From positions 1-64,000 of the IMG/VR virus record IMGVR_UViG_3300037042_006844: a DNA stretch of 64,000 bases; one strand, written 5' to 3'. The DNA comes from a virus. The notes beneath the pieces were generated by a model. That model was given only the letters and a program-made list of their open reading frames with translations, was not told where the DNA came from and ran no database searches. Positions 23,004 to 40,517 of the stretch are shown piece by piece (position 1 is the first letter of the stretch; each line of letters begins with the position of its first letter). The position numbers were made by a program, and so were the translations under genes.

Positions 23004-26000
23004 CTATTCCTTGATATTTGTTTCATCCATAAACGATTTTTCTTGTCCTTCTCGCAAAATTTCTTTTTGCCCGTCTACAGATTTTAACGCCGTTGCTAAT
23101 GATTCCATACTTTCCAACGACAACGGGGATTTTTTTCGGTATTTGTGTGCAGGACGCAAATCGCTACGAGAGTTGATTTCCAACGTTCCGAGTGGGTCTT
23201 CGCCAAACGGATAATCTCTAGCTTTTTTTCTACCAGTCTGATCGCGCTCTGTGAGTTTTGGTGCTTCTCCTCCAGCTGGTGCAGCACTAGCATCGGCACC
23301 GCCAGCTGCTTCTCCACCAGCACCAGCTTCTCCACCAGCCTCATCGCCACCTGGTGAGCCGCCCCCGCCTCCGCCGCTTTCATCACCGCCACCTTCCCCG
23401 CCAGCTTCACCATCACCTTTGGCTTTGAGAAACTCCAATGCGGGATCGTTACCTTCTTCTTCGATTTGTTTGAATCGATACATACCTTTCGCATCGTCCA
23501 CAAGCTCTTTTTGTAGCACAATCATGTCTTGATCGCTCATACCAAAAACATTATCATATATCCACTTCTTGCTGAATAGTTTTTGTTCCTGCATGTCTTT
23601 GGACACTTCGACTTTGCTTTTCCAAACGTCGATTTTTTCTTTTTCAAAAATCGTGGATGGGTTCGTCAGTTCCAAAGTGAAATCGACCAATGCTTCATCA
23701 CGGTATCCTTGACTATACAAATGCACCACCGCAATTTTGTTCAATTCGCTCACAATGATGCGTTGAACACGTTGAATGGTTCTGGCAAAACGAATATCTT
23801 CGGCGGCGAGCGTTGCTTTACCAGACAGTGCTTCGTCATATCCCAAAAATGCTTTGGGGATTTTGAGTGCCGCCATCATTTTGTTGCGCAGATATTCAAT
23901 ATCGTCAGTTCCTGTCCATTCAAGGCCTGGCAAATTCTCAATATTGGTTCCGCTATCGCCACCACGAACTGGAAGGAAAAAATCTTCAACCATGTTTTGT
24001 AGGTTGAAACGCAGATTGTAATCACCCGTGTTTTGATCCAAATATGGAGTCTTTTTCATTTGTTGAATAAGACGTTCCATATGGTTATCAACCTCATTTG
24101 GAGGAATATTACCAATGTCCACTTTGAAAATGCGTTTTTCGGGTGCTCGCATGATACGATGGATCAACATAGCGTCTTCCATCAAGCTCAACTGTTTCCA
24201 AACTCGTCGAGCACCTTCCAACATCGAATTATGAACGACTATTCCATTTGCTACAAAATTTGAATTTTCCGATTCAACTTGAATGTCATAAGTTGGTTGT
24301 ATCCCAATTGATTCTATAGATTTAATAGGGTCCAGAATAACACTATCACATCCAATATGAGAATATTTATGTAATTGCGTCTTTTTTAATCCATCCAAAT
24401 AGAAATATATGTAATATGACTTGGTTCTGTTACATGTTGTCCCACATATTATAGTTTCACCATCAAATCCTCGCTCTTTAACATTTGAACACTTAAATCC
24501 TAAACGAGATATCATACACTTGACATCTTCCACTAAAGTCTTATTATTTAATTCTAATGAATATCGATTTGAATTCCATTTATCCGTAAAAATAGACCCA
24601 TCTGCATCCACAAGTCCATTAATAAATGATAACTGCAACGATTCCGATAGTTGAAATACCCAGTATGGGATTCTTTTCGTGGTCGCTTTTCCTTTGAATC
24701 CGTTAATATACAAAAATTCAGCCAACATCTTAGATCCAACAACAGATTGGTCTCCGCTATTTTCGCCTCCTTCTATCAGTCTCGATTGTTTGTTTGCAAA
24801 CTTTTCAAGTAGTGTTGTGTATTTATCATTCAATTCCAAGTTTACACCCCTCGCAAAACACACAGTATCCATTGCTTTGTTCAACCATCCATCACCAAAC
24901 ATGAACCCAAAAAATTCCATGAAATCGTTGGTAGGGTTAACAGGCAACGAGGTTATATCCGATTTCCATCCGTTATGGTTTGATGTGGTAATAAAATCTG
25001 TGCTAAGTTTTATGTCTGCTCTGGATGACATCGATTTATTGTTAAGAACCAATAAGTCTGTTATTGCCAAATCCCCGGCATTTTTATATACAAATACATC
25101 ATCAGAATATACCAAAATAGGATGTGTATCTGTGCATTCGATTGAATTGTGTTGGGTGCTTATTTTATAAGTATGTTTGTCCCCAGAAGCAATCGAATTA
25201 AGAACTGTCGATAATTCATATGTTCTACTTTCTACATTATAAGTCCATACTTTATCACCCACCGCAATTTCGTTTATGCGTTTCGCACCAAATTCCATGT
25301 CCACATATGAGTTTTTTGCCAAACATTTTCCATATGGCAGAAAATTACTGTCATTTAGCAAACGGAAATGCGCCATTTGATAATTCTCAAGGTCTTCAAT
25401 TTTATTGCCGTATGGAAGATTGACTTGGAATTTGGTAAAGTTTTTGTTGGTCAAATGAGAGTTCTCAACGCGGGTGACATAGTATGAACTAAGCGGCTCC
25501 ACCATGTAAACGCCGTATTCTGGACTGATGTGCATTCTCAAATAGAAATCGCCATATTTAGCCAAACTGCGGGTCCAACTCCAAAGATTGAACTCGATAT
25601 TGAGGATGTCATAAAACAAATTGTTTAGAACGCTTTTGATGTCATCATTGCTGCTACGAACCGTGATCACCTCTCCAAGCTCATTGCGAGTGGTGCATTC
25701 GTCGGCATAAATGTCCAGAGCGGATGCCAAAATCGGGTCCATATCCATAGTATTTCCACAGATTACACTATCAGTTGCAAAGTTATGATATTCCTCCACC
25801 GTAACATCATAGACATCCGTTTCACCTATCATTTCAATAGATACTATTTTATGGTTTAATGTAGTTTCTACTTCCTGCTTGAAAGATTTCCAATCATGCC
25901 CCTCTTTTTTGAGACGATTTTGTAGAGTTGAATGATCGCAATGAATATGATCAATGAACTCCCATAAATTTATTTTTGAGTTTTCTTTATAAAACTCCAA

Positions 26001-26804
26001 TGCTTTCTCTTTGACATTGGAAAATGTTATATCTCCACGATATTTTGGATTGTGTTCTCCTGTTTGATTTCTATTAACAAATACTTCTTTGAGAGTTTTT
26101 GATCGTTGTTCATTCGATTCATCGGAATGTTGTTTTCCATAAAACTGTGTAGCAATAAGTTTGTGTTCAGACACCCATCCGTGAGAATAATTATAAATAC
26201 TCCGATACCCAAGTTTATTGGTGTGTTGATAAAACGGCATTACTGAATCTCCAACCCGAAGTTCATATAACATTTTATACGATCCATCTCTCATCATAAA
26301 TGGATGTTTCAAACTTCCAATGACAAATTTGCCATCATCAAACGTCACTTTATATCCTTGGCGGGTTCCTTTTTTCTTACGAGGATGATACGCCTTTCCC
26401 AATTTAATACTATCTGTTTTGTGGTCATAGCTAAACACATAGAATCTTTCTTGGGGTTTATCTTTGTATCGTTCCGTCAATTCTGCTATTGTTGGGTATG
26501 TTCCATCTGGCAATGGGATAATCGTATCCGGTCCAACACAATCATAATCGCGAAACAACTCAACACGACTACTTTGATAACTGAGATTGAAATCTCGGGT
26601 ATACTGATTATATGCAGTTGTGCGAAGACGATTGAACCTATCACGCAGCGAACTACGATCCGCTGCATAAAAAATTTCGTCGGTGTCGATGACTTTGAGC
26701 TTTTTACCACCGATATTGCGAACAATAATATCGTTGCTAAACAGTCGTTTTAACTTAGCGTATAGCGATCTGTTTTTTAGCTCTTGAAATGATTTTTCAT
26801 CCAT
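23004..26804 (-). CDS. gp20: Portal protein (gp20-like) containing two inteins
   Basis: The 1266-aa precursor contains a portal of about 637 aa interrupted twice. Extein residues 1-88 include DRFNRLRTTAYNQYTRDF; residues 352-493 include MDPILASALDIYADECT and WSWTRSLAKYGDFYLRMHI; residues 860-1266 include SMLEGARRVWKQLSLMEDAM, PEKRIFKVDIGN and IPKAFLGYDEALSGKATLA, all typical of gp20. The portal forms the 12-subunit ring through which DNA is packed. The C-terminal part has a long Gly/Glu-rich low-complexity stretch. Intein 1 spans residues 89-351 and intein 2 spans 494-859. Each starts with Cys and ends with Asn, and the next extein residue is Thr or Ser. Joined exteins read FRDYD-TMDMDP and LPYGK-SMLEGA, as expected of uninterrupted portals. 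Confidence 0.9.
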   Translation of the reverse strand: MDEKSFQELKNRSLYAKLKRLFSNDIIVRNIGGKKLKVIDTDEIFYAADRSSLRDRFNRLRTTAYNQYTRDFNLSYQSSRVELFRDYDCVGPDTIIPLPDGTYPTIAELTERYKDKPQERFYVFSYDHKTDSIKLGKAYHPRKKKGTRQGYKVTFDDGKFVIGSLKHPFMMRDGSYKMLYELRVGDSVMPFYQHTNKLGYRSIYNYSHGWVSEHKLIATQFYGKQHSDESNEQRSKTLKEVFVNRNQTGEHNPKYRGDITFSNVKEKALEFYKENSKINLWEFIDHIHCDHSTLQNRLKKEGHDWKSFKQEVETTLNHKIVSIEMIGETDVYDVTVEEYHNFATDSVICGNTMDMDPILASALDIYADECTTRNELGEVITVRSSNDDIKSVLNNLFYDILNIEFNLWSWTRSLAKYGDFYLRMHISPEYGVYMVEPLSSYYVTRVENSHLTNKNFTKFQVNLPYGNKIEDLENYQMAHFRLLNDSNFLPYGKCLAKNSYVDMEFGAKRINEIAVGDKVWTYNVESRTYELSTVLNSIASGDKHTYKISTQHNSIECTDTHPILVYSDDVFVYKNAGDLAITDLLVLNNKSMSSRADIKLSTDFITTSNHNGWKSDITSLPVNPTNDFMEFFGFMFGDGWLNKAMDTVCFARGVNLELNDKYTTLLEKFANKQSRLIEGGENSGDQSVVGSKMLAEFLYINGFKGKATTKRIPYWVFQLSESLQLSFINGLVDADGSIFTDKWNSNRYSLELNNKTLVEDVKCMISRLGFKCSNVKERGFDGETIICGTTCNRTKSYYIYFYLDGLKKTQLHKYSHIGCDSVILDPIKSIESIGIQPTYDIQVESENSNFVANGIVVHNSMLEGARRVWKQLSLMEDAMLIHRIMRAPEKRIFKVDIGNIPPNEVDNHMERLIQQMKKTPYLDQNTGDYNLRFNLQNMVEDFFLPVRGGDSGTNIENLPGLEWTGTDDIEYLRNKMMAALKIPKAFLGYDEALSGKATLAAEDIRFARTIQRVQRIIVSELNKIAVVHLYSQGYRDEALVDFTLELTNPSTIFEKEKIDVWKSKVEVSKDMQEQKLFSKKWIYDNVFGMSDQDMIVLQKELVDDAKGMYRFKQIEEEGNDPALEFLKAKGDGEAGGEGGGDESGGGGGGSPGGDEAGGEAGAGGEAAGGADASAAPAGGEAPKLTERDQTGRKKARDYPFGEDPLGTLEINSRSDLRPAHKYRKKSPLSLESMESLATALKSVDGQKEILREGQEKSFMDETNIKE
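24228..25325 (-). mobile_element. Portal intein 2, with LAGLIDADG endonuclease (366 aa)
   Basis: Cys494 opens the splicing domain (CLAKNSYVDMEFG), a TxxH-type block B reads CTDTHPI, and the C-terminal block ends FVANGIVVHN before extein Ser860. Between them lie two LAGLIDADG-type motifs, FGFMFGDGWL and INGLVDADGSI, each with an acidic residue in the catalytic position. The endonuclease therefore looks intact and the element may still home. The insertion interrupts the extein stretch LPYGK-SMLEGA. Confidence 0.9.
25752..26540 (-). mobile_element. Portal intein 1, short central domain (263 aa)
   Basis: Cys89 opens the intein (CVGPDTIIPLPDGT), block B reads GSLKHPF, and the C-terminal block ends NFATDSVICGN before extein Thr352. 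No LAGLIDADG motif is present. The middle (WVSEHKLIATQFYGK, then NPKYRGDITFSN and a helix-turn-helix-like tail) resembles an HNH/NUMOD-type endonuclease region but lacks a clear paired-His catalytic centre, so it is probably degenerate. Splicing residues are intact. Confidence 0.85.
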
Positions 26805-26828: not shown

Positions 26829-28037
26829 TTATAACAACCAAGTTAGTGACTCTTTTTTGCCAGTATGCGCTGCGCCGGTGTCGAATTTCCAAGTTTCTTG
26901 AGGAGATTGGATGATTTTGGTCTGACTTGCGGGTCCTGGAGTAGTGTTTACCACCTTTTTAATGCCACTCAGCATGGTGCGTGTGTATAGCATTTGCTCG
27001 GTTCGTATTTTTAATGCGGTGTCTCGCACCCAAAGACCAATACCCAACGACATCACAAGATCGTCGTTATAGCCTTTCATTGCTTCAGCTTTAGCACCGT
27101 TCCAAATAAACACATTAAGCTCTTCGTAAAGACGGACACTACGAATTACAATTTGTTGTTCACGGAAAAACGCCTCCATTTTGTTGATAATGAGTTGGCG
27201 GTTGATGTTTGTCGTTGTGAATCCGGGAACTGCTTTTTTCTCAGTATTATTGAGTTTATTGCTATAAGTTCGCTCTATATCGACAACTTTTAGATCAGAT
27301 GAACTGTAAAAAAGATTTTGGTATTCTCTGTCTATAATTTGCTGCAACGATGCCCAACCAATGTTATTGTTTTCAACGACCAACAAAGCATTGTTATATT
27401 CAGTTGCCACTGTTACCAACAAATTTCCAAAATCTTTGGTTGTAATCTGCCCTTTATATTCCGCAACTTGCTCCAAAGTTTCAACGTCAAATACATGAAA
27501 CGCGCTAAAATCCGCTCCGTCGCCGCGAGCGCAGTCGGCAGATATCATATAGTTTTTGCTGTAATCAGGACGTTCCCATATCCACAAATCCTGTGTGGCA
27601 CCACGTTTTTCAATGGGGTCTTTGATATAAGTTTTTTTGTAAAACTCCAAGACATCGACTGAGACGACTTGATTTCCAGATGTGCTGAAATCACAATTAT
27701 GCGATACAATTCCATCTACATTGAATATATTGCCGTTGCCGACATTTACAATATCATATAAATCGATTGCGGCATCGACTTTCGTAATGGATATAACTTC
27801 GATATCCGCGCCATCAACTCCTGTTATTTTTGAGCCAATTTTTATATCGCACGAACGAATTTCTATTGAATTAAAAATAAAAGGATGATTATCAGAACAC
27901 TTTATCGTCTTGCCATTACTCAAAAATATGACATAATGACAATCTTTTTTTAGCTTTCTAATACCCAAAAAATTTTGATATCCAGAAGGAGTGAGAATCT
28001 GGAATCTTGTGTTAAGCTTAACGTCAGGGATGTTCAT
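26829..28037 (-). CDS. gp17-C: Large terminase C-terminal part preceded by split-intein C fragment
   Basis: The 402-aa product has two parts. Residues 1-114 are the C fragment of a split intein: FQILTPSGYQNFLG, block B CSDNHPF, then IDLYDIVNVGNGNIFNVDGI and terminal VSHN. Residues 115-402 are the terminase C-extein starting Cys-Asp-Phe-Ser and holding the RNase H-like nuclease: ISADCARGDGADFSAFHVFD, VVENNNIGWASLQQI and KGYNDDLVMSLGIG carry the acidic residues. I start at the ATG at 28037; an in-frame TTG at 28052 would overlap the upstream stop. Trans-splicing with the product of 28049-28882 would give a 534-aa terminase with the joint AAQECD-CDFSTSG. Confidence 0.85.
   Translation of the reverse strand: MNIPDVKLNTRFQILTPSGYQNFLGIRKLKKDCHYVIFLSNGKTIKCSDNHPFIFNSIEIRSCDIKIGSKITGVDGADIEVISITKVDAAIDLYDIVNVGNGNIFNVDGIVSHNCDFSTSGNQVVSVDVLEFYKKTYIKDPIEKRGATQDLWIWERPDYSKNYMISADCARGDGADFSAFHVFDVETLEQVAEYKGQITTKDFGNLLVTVATEYNNALLVVENNNIGWASLQQIIDREYQNLFYSSSDLKVVDIERTYSNKLNNTEKKAVPGFTTTNINRQLIINKMEAFFREQQIVIRSVRLYEELNVFIWNGAKAEAMKGYNDDLVMSLGIGLWVRDTALKIRTEQMLYTRTMLSGIKKVVNTTPGPASQTKIIQSPQETWKFDTGAAHTGKKESLTWLL
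27696..28037 (-). mobile_element. Split intein C fragment (114 aa)
   Basis: From the ATG start to the terminal Asn before extein Cys. It holds the block B His, the HN terminus and the strand usually found just after the N-terminal region, so the break lies very early in the intein. No endonuclease domain is present. Confidence 0.88.
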
Positions 28038-28048
28038 AATGTATATGA

Positions 28049-28882
28049 TCAAATTAGATGAGAATATAAATTTTCTAATGAAATCTCATATTCGATACCA
28101 GTATTTTTATCTAGTATTTTAACTGTCGAATCCCCCCATAGACAATCGCATTCTTGAGCCGCCCCTTTTATGCCAGACAATTCGGTCTGTTGATCGCGCC
28201 ATGTTTGATCACGATCTGGATGCAAATTCCAAGGCAGACGAATGGTATTGAACTTGTTTTCACCGGCTTCGGCTGCCACCCACGTTTTATGGAAAAAATT
28301 ACCAACACCGTTTGGCGTTGATAATATGATCGCACGACCGCCGGTTGAAAGAGTGTATTGTGATGACAGCCAAATTTCTTCGATGTTGTCAATAAACGCG
28401 GCTTCGTCAATAATCAGCACAGAGAGTGCTGCTGAACGACCTGCGGTTCCCGCACTGGAAACAGCTTTGATTTGCGACCCGTTTTTGAGACGCAAGCTCA
28501 AACGGTTATCTTCCACGCACTGAACTTTCAACCACGCCGGAAGATTGTCATTTGCGAAACGAACTTTTGTGACAATTTCTTTGGCAGTTTCCTGAGTAAT
28601 GCTGATGATTAGAATATTTTTGTCGGTAAAAAACGTCATCAACCACAAACTATATGCTGCCGTTAGAGTGGAAATACCCATCTGACGACTTTTGAGAATG
28701 ATGTTGAGACTGTTTTCTACCAAATCTGTAAGAGCCTCTTCCTGAAATGGATACAAATCAAAATTACAGGTGCCGCGCACTGGATGTTGGATTTTCACAT
28801 ACTTCTTCATGAAGTATATGGGGTCTTCCAAACATCGTTTATACTCGGCTTTTATTAGCTCTCTGTAATTTTGCTGACTCAT
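28049..28882 (-). CDS. gp17-N: Large terminase N-terminal ATPase part ending in split-intein N fragment
   Basis: Residues 1-246 of this 277-aa protein are the packaging ATPase of a T4-type large terminase: an adenine-binding YPFQEEA motif, Walker A in LKSRQMGISTL (63-73), Walker B in VLIIDEAAF (155-163) and the coupling segment IILSTPNG. Residues 247-277 are the N fragment of an intein: CLWGDSTVKILDKNTGIEYE, then ISLENLYSHLI and a stop. The downstream gene, in another frame, supplies the remaining intein and the nuclease half. Only after trans-splicing would a working terminase form. The gene overlaps the upstream zinc-binding protein by 44 nt. Confidence 0.88.
   Translation of the reverse strand: MSQQNYRELIKAEYKRCLEDPIYFMKKYVKIQHPVRGTCNFDLYPFQEEALTDLVENSLNIILKSRQMGISTLTAAYSLWLMTFFTDKNILIISITQETAKEIVTKVRFANDNLPAWLKVQCVEDNRLSLRLKNGSQIKAVSSAGTAGRSAALSVLIIDEAAFIDNIEEIWLSSQYTLSTGGRAIILSTPNGVGNFFHKTWVAAEAGENKFNTIRLPWNLHPDRDQTWRDQQTELSGIKGAAQECDCLWGDSTVKILDKNTGIEYEISLENLYSHLI
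28052..28144 (-). mobile_element. Split intein N fragment (31 aa)
   Basis: The fragment starts at Cys247 after AAQECD and ends at the stop codon. An N fragment of about 30 residues paired with a C fragment of about 110 is the layout of atypically split inteins known from phage terminases, such as AceL-TerL (recalled). It differs from cyanobacterial DnaE inteins, whose N part is about 100 residues. Confidence 0.88.
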
Positions 28883-30634: not shown

Positions 30635-32143
30635 TCACATAGGTCGAGTCCACTCAAACTTAAAATGCCCGCAATCCCATATTCTGTCATATCCATTTAT
30701 TTGCATATTTTTCCATTCGCTCAAATTTGTGTCAAATTGTTTGAGTTTTTTATTGAGCTTATGCTTTTGAAAGTGCGATCTGCCAATTGGAACACAATTA
30801 TTTGTATGGAAATAATGATACCCAGCTGGTGTATGTGACACAAATCTCATGCCTATATTTTTATACACGGACCCAGTAAATAATCTTTTATCGGAGTATG
30901 TTACTACTGAATTAACATCGTAATTTTTTACAAAGTGCGCAAACAATTTAGATGCACCACCCACAATATGCGTATTGAGAGTATTGCAATAACGAGATAA
31001 TTCATATTGATATTTTTTATCGTATCTAGACTTGACAAACGTCATAATGGACAATAGAACGTCATCTTTATACAACCCGATTCTTATTGAAGATGTGTCA
31101 TCCCCCTGAATATGATTTTTGATTAAAAACTCCGTTTTATCAACGTTTGAAACTTCTTTAATTACGCATTTCCGAGCATGAAATTTCTCAGATTTTTTAA
31201 TTTTATTTAGCAATATACTTTTGACGATATCTTGTTTGCATTTCCACTCCCAATCCCAAATGTGCATCAATTCAATATTTTTTTCCGCACATCTATTTGT
31301 TTTCGACAAATGGTATTTTTTATTCTTTTTACCAGCCAACTCGCCATGCCAATATATGCCGTCGCATTCTATAGCCATATTTAACTGCGGCAGTAAAATA
31401 TCGATCTCCTCTCCGCCCAATATTGTTCTATCGTGTGGCTTTGTAACAACGTTATATTCATGCAAAAAACTCAAAATTTCTGTTTCTATGGAAGACGCGA
31501 ATCTGTTGTGTGGATTGCAATTCAAGCATCGAGGAATGTTCCCAGAATACAGATTATCTTCAAAATTATTGCCGCATTTACAACAAGTAAATTTGTATAG
31601 GGTATCATAAGAAGAACCGGCGTATTGTTCGCGGGTAAATAACGGGGTAACGATATTATGCAGCCTGCCCCCATCAAATATATCCGCCACGGTCTCGCTC
31701 GCAATTCTGGCGCGATGTTTTTCTTTAACAGCGTCCAATTGAGAAACGTTTGTAATATTATTATCGACTAAATATTGTTTATATTTTTTTGATTCGAATC
31801 CAATTTGCTTTGATTCGAGTCGTTTCTGTGTGCTTTTGAGTGTATTCGGAGATACATTCATGCCATATTTTTCATTATTCGTTTTTAGCATTTTATCGCG
31901 ATTATTGAAATGCTCGTCACCATATTTTTCCAATTTCGTGCGTTTTGCTTTTTCTAAATTGTTGTAATTTTCATCGCCGTATTTTTCTTTCAACGTAGAT
32001 TTCATGTTCAAAACCATTTTATCATACGCCCCATTTTCTCGTTTTTGGCGTATTTTGTCTTTGACATGTGGTAATTGCGATGGATGATACACACCATATT
32101 TTTTGAAAAAAGCGTCTCTTATTTTTTTACCTCGTTCGGTCAT
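30635..32143 (-). CDS. Free-standing EDxHD homing endonuclease with a possible Mom/GNAT-like C-terminal domain
   Basis: The 502-aa protein starts at the ATG at 32143, 8 nt after a strong AAGGAG. Residues 15-100 hold four KYG-type repeats (KEKYGDENYNNLEKAKRTKL), seen in DNA-binding parts of phage endonucleases. A zinc ribbon (CCKCG...CLNCN) spans about 187-209. The nuclease core follows: SSIETEILSFL, EEIDILLPQLNMAIECDGIYWH and LMHIWDWEW, typical of Vsr-like EDxHD enzymes. Residues about 325-500 resemble a GNAT fold; the series ELSRYC, VVTYSD and GSVYKNIGMRF recalls Mom. It sits between the sheath and ligase-like genes with its own promoter and terminator. DNA cutting at the matching intergenic site of related phages is the expected role. 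Confidence 0.8.
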   Translation of the reverse strand: MTERGKKIRDAFFKKYGVYHPSQLPHVKDKIRQKRENGAYDKMVLNMKSTLKEKYGDENYNNLEKAKRTKLEKYGDEHFNNRDKMLKTNNEKYGMNVSPNTLKSTQKRLESKQIGFESKKYKQYLVDNNITNVSQLDAVKEKHRARIASETVADIFDGGRLHNIVTPLFTREQYAGSSYDTLYKFTCCKCGNNFEDNLYSGNIPRCLNCNPHNRFASSIETEILSFLHEYNVVTKPHDRTILGGEEIDILLPQLNMAIECDGIYWHGELAGKKNKKYHLSKTNRCAEKNIELMHIWDWEWKCKQDIVKSILLNKIKKSEKFHARKCVIKEVSNVDKTEFLIKNHIQGDDTSSIRIGLYKDDVLLSIMTFVKSRYDKKYQYELSRYCNTLNTHIVGGASKLFAHFVKNYDVNSVVTYSDKRLFTGSVYKNIGMRFVSHTPAGYHYFHTNNCVPIGRSHFQKHKLNKKLKQFDTNLSEWKNMQINGYDRIWDCGHFKFEWTRPM

Positions 32144-32170
32144 ATACAATACTCCTTATCTAATAGATAC

Positions 32171-36353: not shown

Positions 36354-39300
36354 TTACCGAAAGCTTATCTTGCTATACCCATTTTCTTTTTTGATTTCGA
36401 GATGCATATCAACCATATCTCGCATTTGATCCAAATGGCTGATAATCCAAATGAAATCGAATTGGTGTTTCAAATACGTGAACAGAGCACCCATCTGCCC
36501 CAAATGGTCGCTATCAGCACAACCAAATCCCTCGTCGATGCAAATGATATTGGGTCTCGGAAGATTGCTGATATTGATAAGAGCAACACGAATAGCCAGT
36601 CCACTGATGAATTTCTCCATTCCACTTCCCATTTCCAATGCCCAGCGGCGATCTTCATACACAATATTACTCATGATGTTTTTACCATCGGTTTGCAAAG
36701 TAACAGTGAACTCCACAATCTGATGCAAAATGTTGTTAACCTCTTTTTCAATCTCTGGCAAAGTTTTTGTAATTACTTCGTAGGGAATGCCATCTCGACT
36801 TATTACAGAAGTATACAGTTTATACGTTTCATAGGTCGATTCCAACTCTTTTACTTTTTTCAATTGATCTGTGGTGTTTTTATACTGAAGCTCCAGCTTT
36901 CCTTTTTCAGTGGATGCTTTGAACAGATCATTATTGGTGTTTTTGATGTCGGATTCGACGCGTTTTACCGAGTTTTTACAGTCAGTAATTTCAGCAAGCA
37001 GTTTGTTATTGTTCTCGATAATATCCTTATTTTTGTAAAATATGTCGATATTATCCGTGACCAATTTGAGCTTGTTTTGTAGATCATTTAGAGCGTTTTC
37101 CAATTTCAAAATGGTATTATTGAACGATGACCGAGCCTTTTCCAGCGTGGTTTTTTCAGTGTTGGATCGTTGACATTCTTTGTAGCGAACCTCAATGTCA
37201 CCATGTTTTTCAACTTTTTGTTTTATGCCGTTGTAAAGAGTCACAATTGCTGTGGCACGGTTTCGTTCATTATCCAAATCTTGTTTGGTTGCAATTGCAT
37301 CTTTAACAAACACATTGTTGACGCAGTATGAACAGTCAGGATCGTATTTATGTTCCTCAAGCTTTTTGAGTTTGTCCATCTTACTACGAATCACCAATTT
37401 GAGCTTTTCGATGTCGGATGAGGTTTTGCTTTCTTCGGCTTTATCAATTTTGTATTGCTCATACTCGACATCGATATTTTCACACGTTGCGAGTGAACCG
37501 CTCAATTCAGCTATGCGACGTTCCACATTGGCGAGTTCGGCTTTTTGATCAGAAATGTCGTTTTGAGTAGTTGCGATCTTTTTGTCGAATTCGATTTTGT
37601 CGGATTCCAGCACAGTAATATCGTGAGCAAAAGAATCAGCTTTGGTAATGTTATTGCTCAGTTCAAGCAATTTACCATTCCACTCTTCTTTTTTAATTTC
37701 CAGATCAGCCATCTGTTTATTTGAATCAACAATTTTTGCAGTGTTGATCTCGATGCTGCCAGAGATGTGTTCCAGTTCTTCGACGAGCTGGTCTTTGCTA
37801 ATGTTTTTCAACAGTGTATTTGTATCTCTGAAATTGTCATTTGCAATGTTATACAACTGATCGAATACTGTTAATCCCATGAATTGGCACAGCAAATCTT
37901 TACGTTCAGTCTGCCCAAGGTCTACAAACGATCCTGCTTTGCTGTTCTGAACACTCAAAACCGTGAGAATAAAATCCTCATATGTTCCAACATAATCGCG
38001 AATAATGTCGTTGGTGCTGCGCCGGGCTTCTCCATTCAATGGAATTTCGTTACCATTCTCGATTTTGTAAAATTTGACCTCTACCTTAACGTTGCCCTTT
38101 TTATCAGCTGCCCCTTTGCGTTCAATAAAATAATCAACACCGCTCACTTCAAAATTGAACTTACAACTGAAGCTCATCTTTTGAGTGTTCATTACATTAA
38201 CGGCTTTGTAGCCTTTGCTGAACTTATCAAACACACAAAATGCCAACGCATCCATGATGCTGCTCTTGCCACTGGCATTCGGAGCAAACAAACCTATCGT
38301 GCCTTTCAACTGAGTGAAATCAATGAAATTATCCTCACCATAACTGAACATATTGTCAAACTCAAAAGTTTTGGGTTTCCAACGAATGTTTTTTGGCGTT
38401 TTGTCTTTTGGAATTTGTGTGTTGATCGTTTTGTTGAGTTGTTTGACTTTCTCAATCAACTCGGGGTCCACTTTCTTCGCAAGCAGATTGTCCTCAATCA
38501 ATGTGTTTTGGTAGTCTGCGTCAAAAATGCTATGAATATCTAGCACTTGACCGATCTTGGATGCTTGCGTATCATACTCATCAATTCTGATAAACGTTGA
38601 TTCCAAAATCTCGCATTTGGTTTTGATGGTATTAATAACCTCTTTAACTTGAGATGGAATTGTTTCAAAACACTTGGTGCGAATACGAGCTTTTTTGGGA
38701 ATGTTACTGATATCTGTGAGCAGTTCACCCTTGCTGATTTCGACGGTATAAAACCCATAGTCATTTGAAAGTTCGTAATGTTTGAACAGTCGGCGTTTCA
38801 AATCCCATGCCAAAAATCCGTGACCTTTGAGTTCTTCACCGTGATTTTGTTGGATCATTGAACCGGCATAAACAATTACTGGCTTGCCTTCGCCGTCATC
38901 ATACTCTTGCAATACTTGATGTTTATGTATGTCGCCCAACATTACTATATGATGCCCATCAAATAGATCGTTTGTGATGGCGCGATTGCTGACAGTATAG
39001 CCAACATCCGTAATGGCGTTGTTTACTGGACCGTGAAACAGAGCAATATGGTGATCAGTTTCCAATCGATATTTGGCTGGAATATTGTCATACTTGATGT
39101 ATTTGTCTGGAGCGTCAAACACACTGAAATGGTTGAACAGTATGTTTTCGTATCGAAATATGTCGGTGGGTTTGAGATAATAAAGATTCGGATGATTCAG
39201 AGCATCCACGATTGGAGTCAAACAATCCAAACGATTTTTATTGGAAAGCATACAATTTCCGCATATACTAATCAGCCCGTTTCTACGAGTCAAAACATTA

Positions 39301-40517
39301 GTATTGGGCACAGACACACAATATACATTTCCATCATATCTAACTTTTCGAATTTCTTTAATAGACGTGTTATTCACCGTATCAGTCAAATTAATATGCC
39401 CAGAATACTGTTGTTTGGAGTTTTCATAATTGCCAAATATAATTCTATCAGATTTTGTTGATGATGCTCCAATTAACCTGGCGATTGTATATAATATATC
39501 AATACTTTCTTTTGATATTGATGTAAAATACCAATAATTTTTACCATTTTTAGACAAACTCCCATCGCCATGTAAATAGCCGTCCATAAAACTTTTCAAT
39601 TCGGAATTTGTATGTGAAAAAATAGATGGCGGTATTTCTTTTTTATTATTGAAAAATTTACATATGTCTTTTGCCAAACTTTCATAAACAACAATGAAAA
39701 CTGATCCATCTTTTTGAGGTCTGGTTTTTGTTGTATAGTTTAATTTTTTTAATATATTCTCTAAATAAGTTATTTCCCGTTCACATTTGAGATGGAATTG
39801 AACTCGGCATCCATCAAATTTATTTTCATCGGTGTTATTTACATGGTCTCTTAAAACAAAAGTTCCTTCTGCGAAAGAGAATCCCAGCAACTTAAAAAAT
39901 GGGCTTTCTGCGTAATTATTAACAATGCCATTAATTGGAATTAATCCCGTAAGAGGAACATCTTTTGCTTCTTTTTTATAAAATTTATCGGTTTGAGTGT
40001 GATAATACAACATCTGATGTGTCGGAGTAACTAATATATCTGTTTTCTTACCAAGAAAATTATACATGGCTCCGTCGGATCGTTTGATTATTGTTTCACT
40101 TGGGGATTGAAATTCAATTTCCTTTGTATCAACATTGAATGTGGCGATTTTATCCATGCTTTTATTTTCAACATATTTTTTAATGTTGACCCATCCGGAT
40201 TGAGTCAATAGTTCATGATCTTCACTATAACAATCGTGATTGCCAGCAATGAGAATGGTGGGCATTCTATCTGCACACCCTTTCAGAAAATCCCCACCTA
40301 TTTTTACGCACTCTGGACTCAGATCGCTTTTGTTGTGAAACACGTCGCCAGTGATCACACAAATTCCAGCTGCATTTTTACTCAGCCTATCTAGAGCCAA
40401 ATAAAACCGATCAAAAACAGTTGTGTATTCGTCGTGCCGTTTGGTCAATCGGATGTGAATATCCGATACTTGCATTACGATGTCTATTTTTTTGTCTGTA
40501 TTTTTTAGCACTATCAT
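36354..40517 (-). CDS. gp47-gp46: Mre11-Rad50 (gp47-gp46) single-chain fusion interrupted by an intein
   Basis: The 1387-aa precursor carries a complete Mre11-type nuclease followed by a complete Rad50-type ATPase. Mre11 motifs are VSDIHIRL (17-24), ITGDVFHNKSD, AGNHD (91-95), ALFHGPVNN and VMLGDIHKHQ. Rad50 motifs are Walker A LFAPNASGKSSI (743-754), a coiled coil with zinc hook CSYC (1062-1065), a signature-like GMEKFISGLA and Walker B IICIDEGFG. In T4 these are separate proteins processing DNA ends for recombination-dependent replication. The intein occupies residues 96-421, right after GNHD; the spliced protein would be 1061 aa. The start overlaps the primase stop as ATGA. No frame break lies between the two halves. 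Confidence 0.92.
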   Translation of the reverse strand: MIVLKNTDKKIDIVMQVSDIHIRLTKRHDEYTTVFDRFYLALDRLSKNAAGICVITGDVFHNKSDLSPECVKIGGDFLKGCADRMPTILIAGNHDCYSEDHELLTQSGWVNIKKYVENKSMDKIATFNVDTKEIEFQSPSETIIKRSDGAMYNFLGKKTDILVTPTHQMLYYHTQTDKFYKKEAKDVPLTGLIPINGIVNNYAESPFFKLLGFSFAEGTFVLRDHVNNTDENKFDGCRVQFHLKCEREITYLENILKKLNYTTKTRPQKDGSVFIVVYESLAKDICKFFNNKKEIPPSIFSHTNSELKSFMDGYLHGDGSLSKNGKNYWYFTSISKESIDILYTIARLIGASSTKSDRIIFGNYENSKQQYSGHINLTDTVNNTSIKEIRKVRYDGNVYCVSVPNTNVLTRRNGLISICGNCMLSNKNRLDCLTPIVDALNHPNLYYLKPTDIFRYENILFNHFSVFDAPDKYIKYDNIPAKYRLETDHHIALFHGPVNNAITDVGYTVSNRAITNDLFDGHHIVMLGDIHKHQVLQEYDDGEGKPVIVYAGSMIQQNHGEELKGHGFLAWDLKRRLFKHYELSNDYGFYTVEISKGELLTDISNIPKKARIRTKCFETIPSQVKEVINTIKTKCEILESTFIRIDEYDTQASKIGQVLDIHSIFDADYQNTLIEDNLLAKKVDPELIEKVKQLNKTINTQIPKDKTPKNIRWKPKTFEFDNMFSYGEDNFIDFTQLKGTIGLFAPNASGKSSIMDALAFCVFDKFSKGYKAVNVMNTQKMSFSCKFNFEVSGVDYFIERKGAADKKGNVKVEVKFYKIENGNEIPLNGEARRSTNDIIRDYVGTYEDFILTVLSVQNSKAGSFVDLGQTERKDLLCQFMGLTVFDQLYNIANDNFRDTNTLLKNISKDQLVEELEHISGSIEINTAKIVDSNKQMADLEIKKEEWNGKLLELSNNITKADSFAHDITVLESDKIEFDKKIATTQNDISDQKAELANVERRIAELSGSLATCENIDVEYEQYKIDKAEESKTSSDIEKLKLVIRSKMDKLKKLEEHKYDPDCSYCVNNVFVKDAIATKQDLDNERNRATAIVTLYNGIKQKVEKHGDIEVRYKECQRSNTEKTTLEKARSSFNNTILKLENALNDLQNKLKLVTDNIDIFYKNKDIIENNNKLLAEITDCKNSVKRVESDIKNTNNDLFKASTEKGKLELQYKNTTDQLKKVKELESTYETYKLYTSVISRDGIPYEVITKTLPEIEKEVNNILHQIVEFTVTLQTDGKNIMSNIVYEDRRWALEMGSGMEKFISGLAIRVALINISNLPRPNIICIDEGFGCADSDHLGQMGALFTYLKHQFDFIWIISHLDQMRDMVDMHLEIKKENGYSKISFR
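39255..40232 (-). mobile_element. Intein in the Mre11 active site, with LAGLIDADG endonuclease (326 aa)
   Basis: Cys96 opens the intein (CYSEDHELLTQSGW), block B reads VTPTHQM, and it ends LISICGN before extein Cys422. LAGLIDADG-type motifs LLGFSFAEGTF (first) and MDGYLHGDGSL (second) carry acidic residues E217 and D318, so the endonuclease may be active. Insertion directly after the phosphoesterase motif GNHD means the nuclease would stay inactive until splicing. Confidence 0.9.

What the first reader, a model, noticed from the sequence alone, without database searches (positions are those of the whole stretch)
26829..28882. Large terminase broken by an atypically split intein with a 31-residue N fragment
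The ATPase half ends in CLWGDSTV...SHLI and a stop. The next gene, in another frame and 11 nt on, starts with a 114-residue C fragment ending VSHN-C before the nuclease half. Conceptual splicing gives AAQECD-CDFSTSG, a normal terminase joint. The split point equals that of AceL-TerL-type inteins known from metagenomic terminases (recalled). It is a natural, fast-splicing candidate and a case of a packaging motor assembled in trans.
Basis: partly seen in the sequence, partly recalled or inferred. Interest (0 to 1): 0.85.

Follow-up and report, generated by a model that had tools for sequence, protein, structure and literature searches.

The report
Phage packaging motor broken by split intein
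This large phage makes its DNA-packaging enzyme as two separate proteins that almost certainly glue themselves together with a split intein of a known, rare type; relatives show that a mobile DNA-cutting gene usually sits in that break and that here it has apparently been lost, leaving the gene permanently in two pieces.

Summary
On the minus strand, terL is two genes. The N gene (28882..28049) is 246 aa of ATPase half plus a 31-aa intein N fragment. After 11 nt comes the C gene (28037..26829): a 114-aa intein C fragment plus 288 aa of nuclease half. Seventy intein-free relatives join the two halves with no gap at AAQECD|CDFSTSG. Both fragments match the two chains of 6DSL ("Cat", consensus of the AceL-TerL and GOS-TerL inteins), with the break at the same place. 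The window is therefore a new member of the known atypically split TerL inteins. Trans-splicing is strongly expected but not shown.

Relatives add a history. In most, the break holds a roughly 240-aa homing-endonuclease-like gene, and 72 of 75 loci carrying that gene are TerL breaks. In several loci it is partly or wholly deleted, with remnants, while the intein stays split. In one sister group the intein with its nuclease gene is 95-100% identical between phages whose terL is only about 80-90% identical, with steps at both insertion junctions, as expected from recent horizontal transfer. The window is best read as a nuclease-less end state under purifying selection (C fragment dN/dS 0.10-0.13).

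The parts
28145..28882 (-). N-extein: TerL ATPase half, 246 aa, ends ...AAQECD
   Evidence: Terminase_6N 7.6e-14; PHROG 5989 3.5e-44; 60-90% aa identity to relatives
28052..28144 (-). Intein N fragment, 31 aa, Cys1 at 28144..28142; TGA stop at 28051..28049
   Evidence: Collinear with 6DSL_A CatN residues 5-32; 47-61% identity to N fragments of split relatives
28038..28048 (-). 11-nt break (TCATATACATT); probable scar of endonuclease-gene deletion
   Evidence: 9/11 identical in register to the start of the 770-nt spacer of L002; chance about 1-2 in 766 by all 11-mers of a relative's spacer
27696..28037 (-). Intein C fragment, 114 aa, ATG start, ends ...VSHN (penultimate His, terminal Asn)
   Evidence: 6DSL_B CatC 3.1e-22 for the profile; 31-32 invariant columns over 8 relatives; dN/dS 0.10-0.13
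26829..27695 (-). C-extein: TerL nuclease half, 288 aa plus stop, begins with Cys+1 (CDFSTSG)
   Evidence: PHROG 24361 terminase 9.7e-16; joined directly to the N-extein in 70 relatives

Best explanation
The terL gene of this 303-kb phage record carries an atypically split, class 1 intein of the AceL-TerL/GOS-TerL/Cat family. The two proteins (277 and 402 aa) are made from neighbouring genes. The short N fragment docks on the long C fragment, the intein folds, and Cys1, the block-B His, the terminal Asn and Cys+1 carry out trans-splicing, giving a 534-aa terminase with an unmarked ATPase-nuclease joint (inferred from homology, not shown). The break is the site of a separate homing-endonuclease-like gene, still present in most relatives. 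In the window's line that gene was most likely deleted down to an 11-nt scar. The two reading frames keep separate stop and start, so the gene stayed fractured and depends on trans-splicing.
For: Both fragments are homologous to and collinear with Cat chains A and B. The AlphaFold model of the contiguous relative (pLDDT 82) has 6DSL as top PDB match, and the break falls in a coil between a helix and a strand. Exact empty sites occur in 70 relatives. Cys1, block-B HxF, LYDI, HN and Cys+1 are conserved. Purifying selection acts on both fragments (CI dN/dS 0.10-0.13; NI 0.38-0.44, short). Of 38 distinct relatives reached through the C fragment or the C gene, 26 hold the endonuclease ORF, 4 hold remnants, 2 are contiguous, and 6 lack this ORF. 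72 of 75 loci found through the endonuclease are TerL breaks. Deletion remnants are seen directly in L104, L134, L143 and L151, with short remnant matches in L013 and L158. The window is nested with endonuclease-bearing relatives at 100/96 support. Intein plus spacer is 95-100% identical against about 80-90% for exteins, with steps at both junctions, in L108/L104/L111/L002.
Against: No splicing data. The window junction was not found in a second assembly. The deletion scar in the window itself rests on 11 nt. The N-fragment match to CatN alone is weak. No endonuclease activity or target site has been shown for the companion gene.
Confidence: 0.87

Rival explanations
1. The break is a sequencing or assembly frameshift in an ordinary contiguous TerL mini-intein like that of L024.
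For: One indel could join the N frame (..SLENLYS) to the C frame (SSNLIIYIMNIPDV..), since the C frame is open upstream of the ATG. Contiguous relatives exist (L024/L139/L141, L164). No second assembly of the junction was found.
Against: The sister clade (100/96) stops at the matching codon and restarts at the matching ATG. The window's post-stop bases match the non-coding start of the sister spacer. Independent contigs show other nuclease-less splits (L104, L126, L144, L145, and four contigs like L149).
Confidence: 0.06
2. Both halves are made but never ligated; the terminase works as a two-subunit enzyme and the intein pieces are relics or a docking tag.
For: Genes fractured by endonucleases that work as two peptides are known (ribonucleotide reductase split, cited in PMC10448857). 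ATPase and nuclease are separate domains.
Against: All splicing residues are kept in the window and its relatives, and Cys+1 is present in every intein-bearing row extracted. Purifying selection acts on the intein fragments. Relatives of the same type splice in trans (PMC11766414).
Confidence: 0.05
3. The break is bridged at RNA or ribosome level (intron, stop readthrough or frameshift) rather than by protein splicing.
For: Introns do occur in phage terL genes (ICP1, PMC10448857).
Against: 11 nt cannot hold an intron. No Rfam family reaches threshold in the window. Relatives have whole genes in the break. The empty site lies outside both intein fragments, not at the break.
Confidence: 0.02

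Closest known systems
AceL-TerL, GOS-TerL and the engineered consensus Cat (6DSL)
   Same: Inserted in terL; short N fragment (25-37 aa) and long C fragment (104-115 aa); homologous over both fragments; same break position; Cys1 and Cys+1 as in AceL and Cat
   Different: Host is a 303-kb phage record with full context; fragments 31/114; splicing untested; no close sequence identity (30% to CatC in the fold alignment of the contiguous relative L024)
Fractured genes with split inteins and a companion endonuclease gene (Dassa et al. 2009, cited in PMC6892783 and PMC6801210; the paper itself was not readable here)
   Same: Most relatives have two gene halves with an endonuclease-like gene between them; the same genome has a fractured ribonucleotide reductase
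   Different: In the window the endonuclease gene is gone; the break is N-proximal (after about 30 residues), not at the usual site after about 100
Aeromonas phage PX29 genes 17A/17B and other T4-like or Ackermann-type phages (VP-1, K469, Va1, Serratia 92A1, EniLVp02, Providencia PSTRCR_127)
   Same: TerL in two genes with N and C intein fragments at the corresponding place; PX29 was already annotated so in GenBank; EniLVp02 also lacks an endonuclease gene
   Different: Only 24-29% identity; endonucleases are GIY-YIG or DUF559-like and are often fused to one of the fragments
VidaL and gp41-1 inteins
   Same: Same Hint fold, profile hits 5e-4 and 3e-7
   Different: More distant in sequence; other host proteins or break positions (recalled, not tested)

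Membership tests
Atypically split TerL inteins (AceL/GOS/Cat) | Located in the large terminase gene | tested here: met
   Terminase_6N and PHROG terminase hits on both sides; 70 empty sites
Atypically split TerL inteins (AceL/GOS/Cat) | N fragment of about 25-37 aa, C fragment of about 104-115 aa | tested here: met
   31 and 114 aa; sizes of known ones from PMC11766414
Atypically split TerL inteins (AceL/GOS/Cat) | Sequence homology to both Cat fragments with the break at the same position | tested here: met
   6DSL_B 3e-22; 6DSL_A collinear 2-30 vs 5-32 at E 0.04; L024 Met31 aligns with the CatC start
Atypically split TerL inteins (AceL/GOS/Cat) | Class 1 splicing residues (nucleophile 1, block-B His, penultimate His, terminal Asn, nucleophile +1) | tested here: met
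   C1, CSDNH, VSHN, C+1 conserved
Atypically split TerL inteins (AceL/GOS/Cat) | Splices in trans | not testable with these tools
   Needs co-expression or purified fragments
Fractured gene (split intein plus endonuclease gene in the break) | Endonuclease gene between the halves | tested here: not met
   Window break is 11 nt; met in 26 of 38 distinct relatives reached through the C fragment or C gene
Canonically split inteins (Npu DnaE type) | Break after about 100 intein residues | tested here: not met
   Break after residue 31
Homing endonuclease (companion ORF of relatives) | Recognisable nuclease domain and mobility | tested here: inconclusive
   Weak MTES_1575/DUF559 and NUMOD3 hits in L010, weak NUMOD3 in L002 and L022, no nuclease-family hit in L015 or L023; conserved HAENGGE...D.YD...EIDE; dN/dS 0.09-0.27; transfer pattern; no activity shown

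The most novel reading that the evidence does not exclude
The non-canonical, N-proximal break of TerL inteins is a second endonuclease entry site in the intein fold. Nuclease genes of at least two unrelated kinds (a PD-(D/E)XK-like family dedicated to this break, and GIY-YIG) have taken it. Occupation is tolerated because the gene is fractured. When the nuclease gene is lost, by deletions seen many times, the intein remains split as a ratchet and is only rarely re-fused, as perhaps in L024, which keeps a Met where the C fragment used to start.
Probability: 0.6. Interest if true: 0.7.

Novelty: new member of a known kind. Interest (0 to 1): 0.52.

Why it matters
Short-N split inteins are prized for protein labelling, yet few natural ones are characterised; searches give about 60 distinct natural sequences with matched exteins. 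The loci also show, as side-by-side natural alleles, the steps by which an endonuclease gene fractures an essential gene, moves with the intein, and is lost while the fracture stays. That makes the origin of natural split inteins directly testable. A paper on endonuclease insertion in inteins holds that all such domains sit at one conserved site (PMC6801210); these breaks are elsewhere.

Tried and rejected
(1) I first took the EIDE->EIYE change in the endonuclease of the window's sister clade (23 records) as a sign that it was dead. Rejected: its dN/dS is 0.085-0.10, like copies that keep the Asp, and that clade shows recent transfer. (2) Equating the break with the 'N35' loop of PMC6801210: not adopted. 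The break lies in the coil at residues 27-32 of the L024 model, somewhat before the TPSG turn, and I had no coordinates to check. (3) L165 was counted as nuclease-less in the tree; its gap holds a GIY-YIG ORF, so it is not a loss. (4) PDB search with the companion ORF: only chance hits to GAL4. (5) Independent confirmation of the window junction: none found. (6) Dassa et al. 2009 is not held, and no readable paper described an endonuclease gene in the break of atypically split TerL inteins. That absence is weak evidence of novelty. (7) No Rfam match in the window.

Full report
WHAT IS THERE. The window is the first 64 kb of a 303,564-base virus record. On the minus strand, terL is two genes in different frames. 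The first (28882..28049) encodes 246 residues of ATPase half and then CLWGDSTVKILDKNTGIEYEISLENLYSHLI before TGA. Eleven bases later an ATG (28037) opens a 402-aa frame with a 114-residue C fragment ending VSHN and then CDFSTSG and the nuclease half. Pfam and PHROG models place terminase on both sides.

THE INSERTION SITE. Every intein-bearing row extracted has Cys at +1.

FAMILY. A profile of eight C fragments finds 6DSL_B, 'consensus engineered intein CatC', at 3e-22, far ahead of gp41-1 (3e-7) and VidaL (5e-4). The N fragment aligns collinearly with 6DSL_A CatN (weak alone, E 0.04). A contiguous relative, L024, keeps a Met where CatC starts. Its AlphaFold model (mean pLDDT 82; the first and last residues are poorly predicted) has 6DSL_B as best PDB match, and the break falls in a coil between helix 23-26 and strand 33-35. 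The published members have 25/104 (AceL), 37/115 (GOS) and 30/104 (Cat) residues (PMC11766414). The window's 31/114 fits.

THE BREAK IN RELATIVES. In L002, L010, L015, L022 and L023 the break holds a roughly 240-aa ORF of one family, 52-64% identical to L010's copy. It has conserved HAENGGE...LGYFxDxYDxxxNVVxEIDE and paired CxC/CxxC motifs. Some members have weak Pfam hits to MTES_1575/DUF559 restriction-like domains and NUMOD3. I call it endonuclease-like. A scan with that ORF returned 75 new loci, of which 72 are flanked by TerL halves. Three are elsewhere: L245 beside a PhoH-like gene with intein remains, L246 between structural genes, L247 inside a DNA polymerase.

LOSS OF THE ENDONUCLEASE GENE. 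Sixty-one distinct intein alleles were compared: 48 with the full ORF, 4 with fragments, 2 contiguous, and 7 without it, one of which (L165) has a GIY-YIG ORF instead. L104 and L105 have nearly the same intein (99.7-100%), but L104 keeps only the two ends of the ORF. L143, L134 and L151 show other deletions with remnants. In L126 and L144 the C gene starts inside the N fragment's frame. On an intein tree these states are scattered, and well supported branches force eight changes of the label with L165 counted among the losses. The window sits in a 100/96 clade with five ORF-bearing alleles and L104. Its 11-nt spacer matches the start of L002's 770-nt spacer at 9 of 11 positions, so it is most likely one more deletion. 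The tree cannot give direction by itself; remnants do so for several of the other cases.

MOBILITY. Between L108, L104, L111 and L002 the intein and its spacer are 95-100% identical while exteins are about 80-90%, and the step lies at both insertion junctions. This is what recent transfer of the element as a unit predicts. The window's own intein is no more similar to its relatives than its exteins are, so nothing recent is seen for it.

SELECTION. Window versus L098 and L002: C fragment dN/dS 0.13 and 0.10; N fragment 0.44 and 0.38 on only about 31 codons. The companion ORF is also constrained, including in the clade with EIDE->EIYE (0.085-0.135 there; 0.09-0.27 elsewhere).

CULTURED PHAGES. 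Straboviridae and Ackermannviridae members have split TerL inteins at the corresponding place: PX29 (annotated 17A 'putative N-intein', 17B 'putative GIY-YIG endonuclease and C-intein'), VP-1, K469, 1.244.A, Va1, Serratia 92A1, EniLVp02 and Providencia PSTRCR_127. Pfam gives GIY-YIG or SegE for PX29, VP-1, K469, 92A1 and PSTRCR_127, and DUF559/MTES_1575 for Va1. EniLVp02 has no nuclease in the break. The arrangement was thus already visible in annotation, which limits novelty.

HOW IT LIKELY WORKS. Shown: two genes, exact empty site, homology to a spliceable pair, conserved catalytic residues, purifying selection, deletions in relatives. Inferred: that the window pair splices, that only the ligated product packages DNA, that the companion ORF homes, and that the window lost it by deletion. 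The main technical doubt is that one indel could fuse the window's frames and no second assembly was available. Homologous stops and starts in the sister clade make an error unlikely.

VERDICT. A sound observation and a sound reading: a new natural member of a known, small family. The wider pattern in relatives is more interesting than the window alone.

Noticed in passing
window 23004..26804 (-): The T4-like portal gene (1266 aa) carries two contiguous inteins, the second with a LAGLIDADG domain; L004 carries a similar portal intein at the first site.
   Followed up: partly
window 36354..40517 (-): An SbcCD-like 1387-aa ORF (metallophosphatase plus SMC-type ATPase) contains a contiguous intein with a weak LAGLIDADG match.
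   Followed up: partly
window 30635..32149 (-): A freestanding 504-aa homing-endonuclease-like gene (PHROG 3339, 1.7e-103) lies a few genes upstream of terL.
   Followed up: partly
L097 = G000:C1:274000-286000, about 277497-281121 (-), outside the window: A ribonucleotide-reductase-like gene appears fractured into three ORFs by two split inteins, with a 255-aa PD-(D/E)XK-looking ORF in the first break.
   Followed up: partly
L248 = G000:C1:246500-255500, ORF 250454-251167 (+), outside the window: An endonuclease-like ORF of the TerL-break family (E 2e-16) lies between two pieces of what looks like one glycosyltransferase gene, with no intein or Rfam intron seen.
   Followed up: partly
L004 1986..5138: A TerL broken at a different place (Walker B, DE|CAFIDD) by a related split intein: 33-aa N fragment, 354-aa ORF in the break, C fragment 33% identical to the window's.
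   Followed up: partly
L083 (Vibrio phage VP-1): TerL has a second, contiguous intein at the Walker A motif (SRQSGK|C...HNT) besides the split one fused to GIY-YIG.
   Followed up: no
L025-L030: Six intein-free terL alleles have Thr instead of Cys at the +1 position; no intein was found in any allele with Thr there.
   Followed up: no
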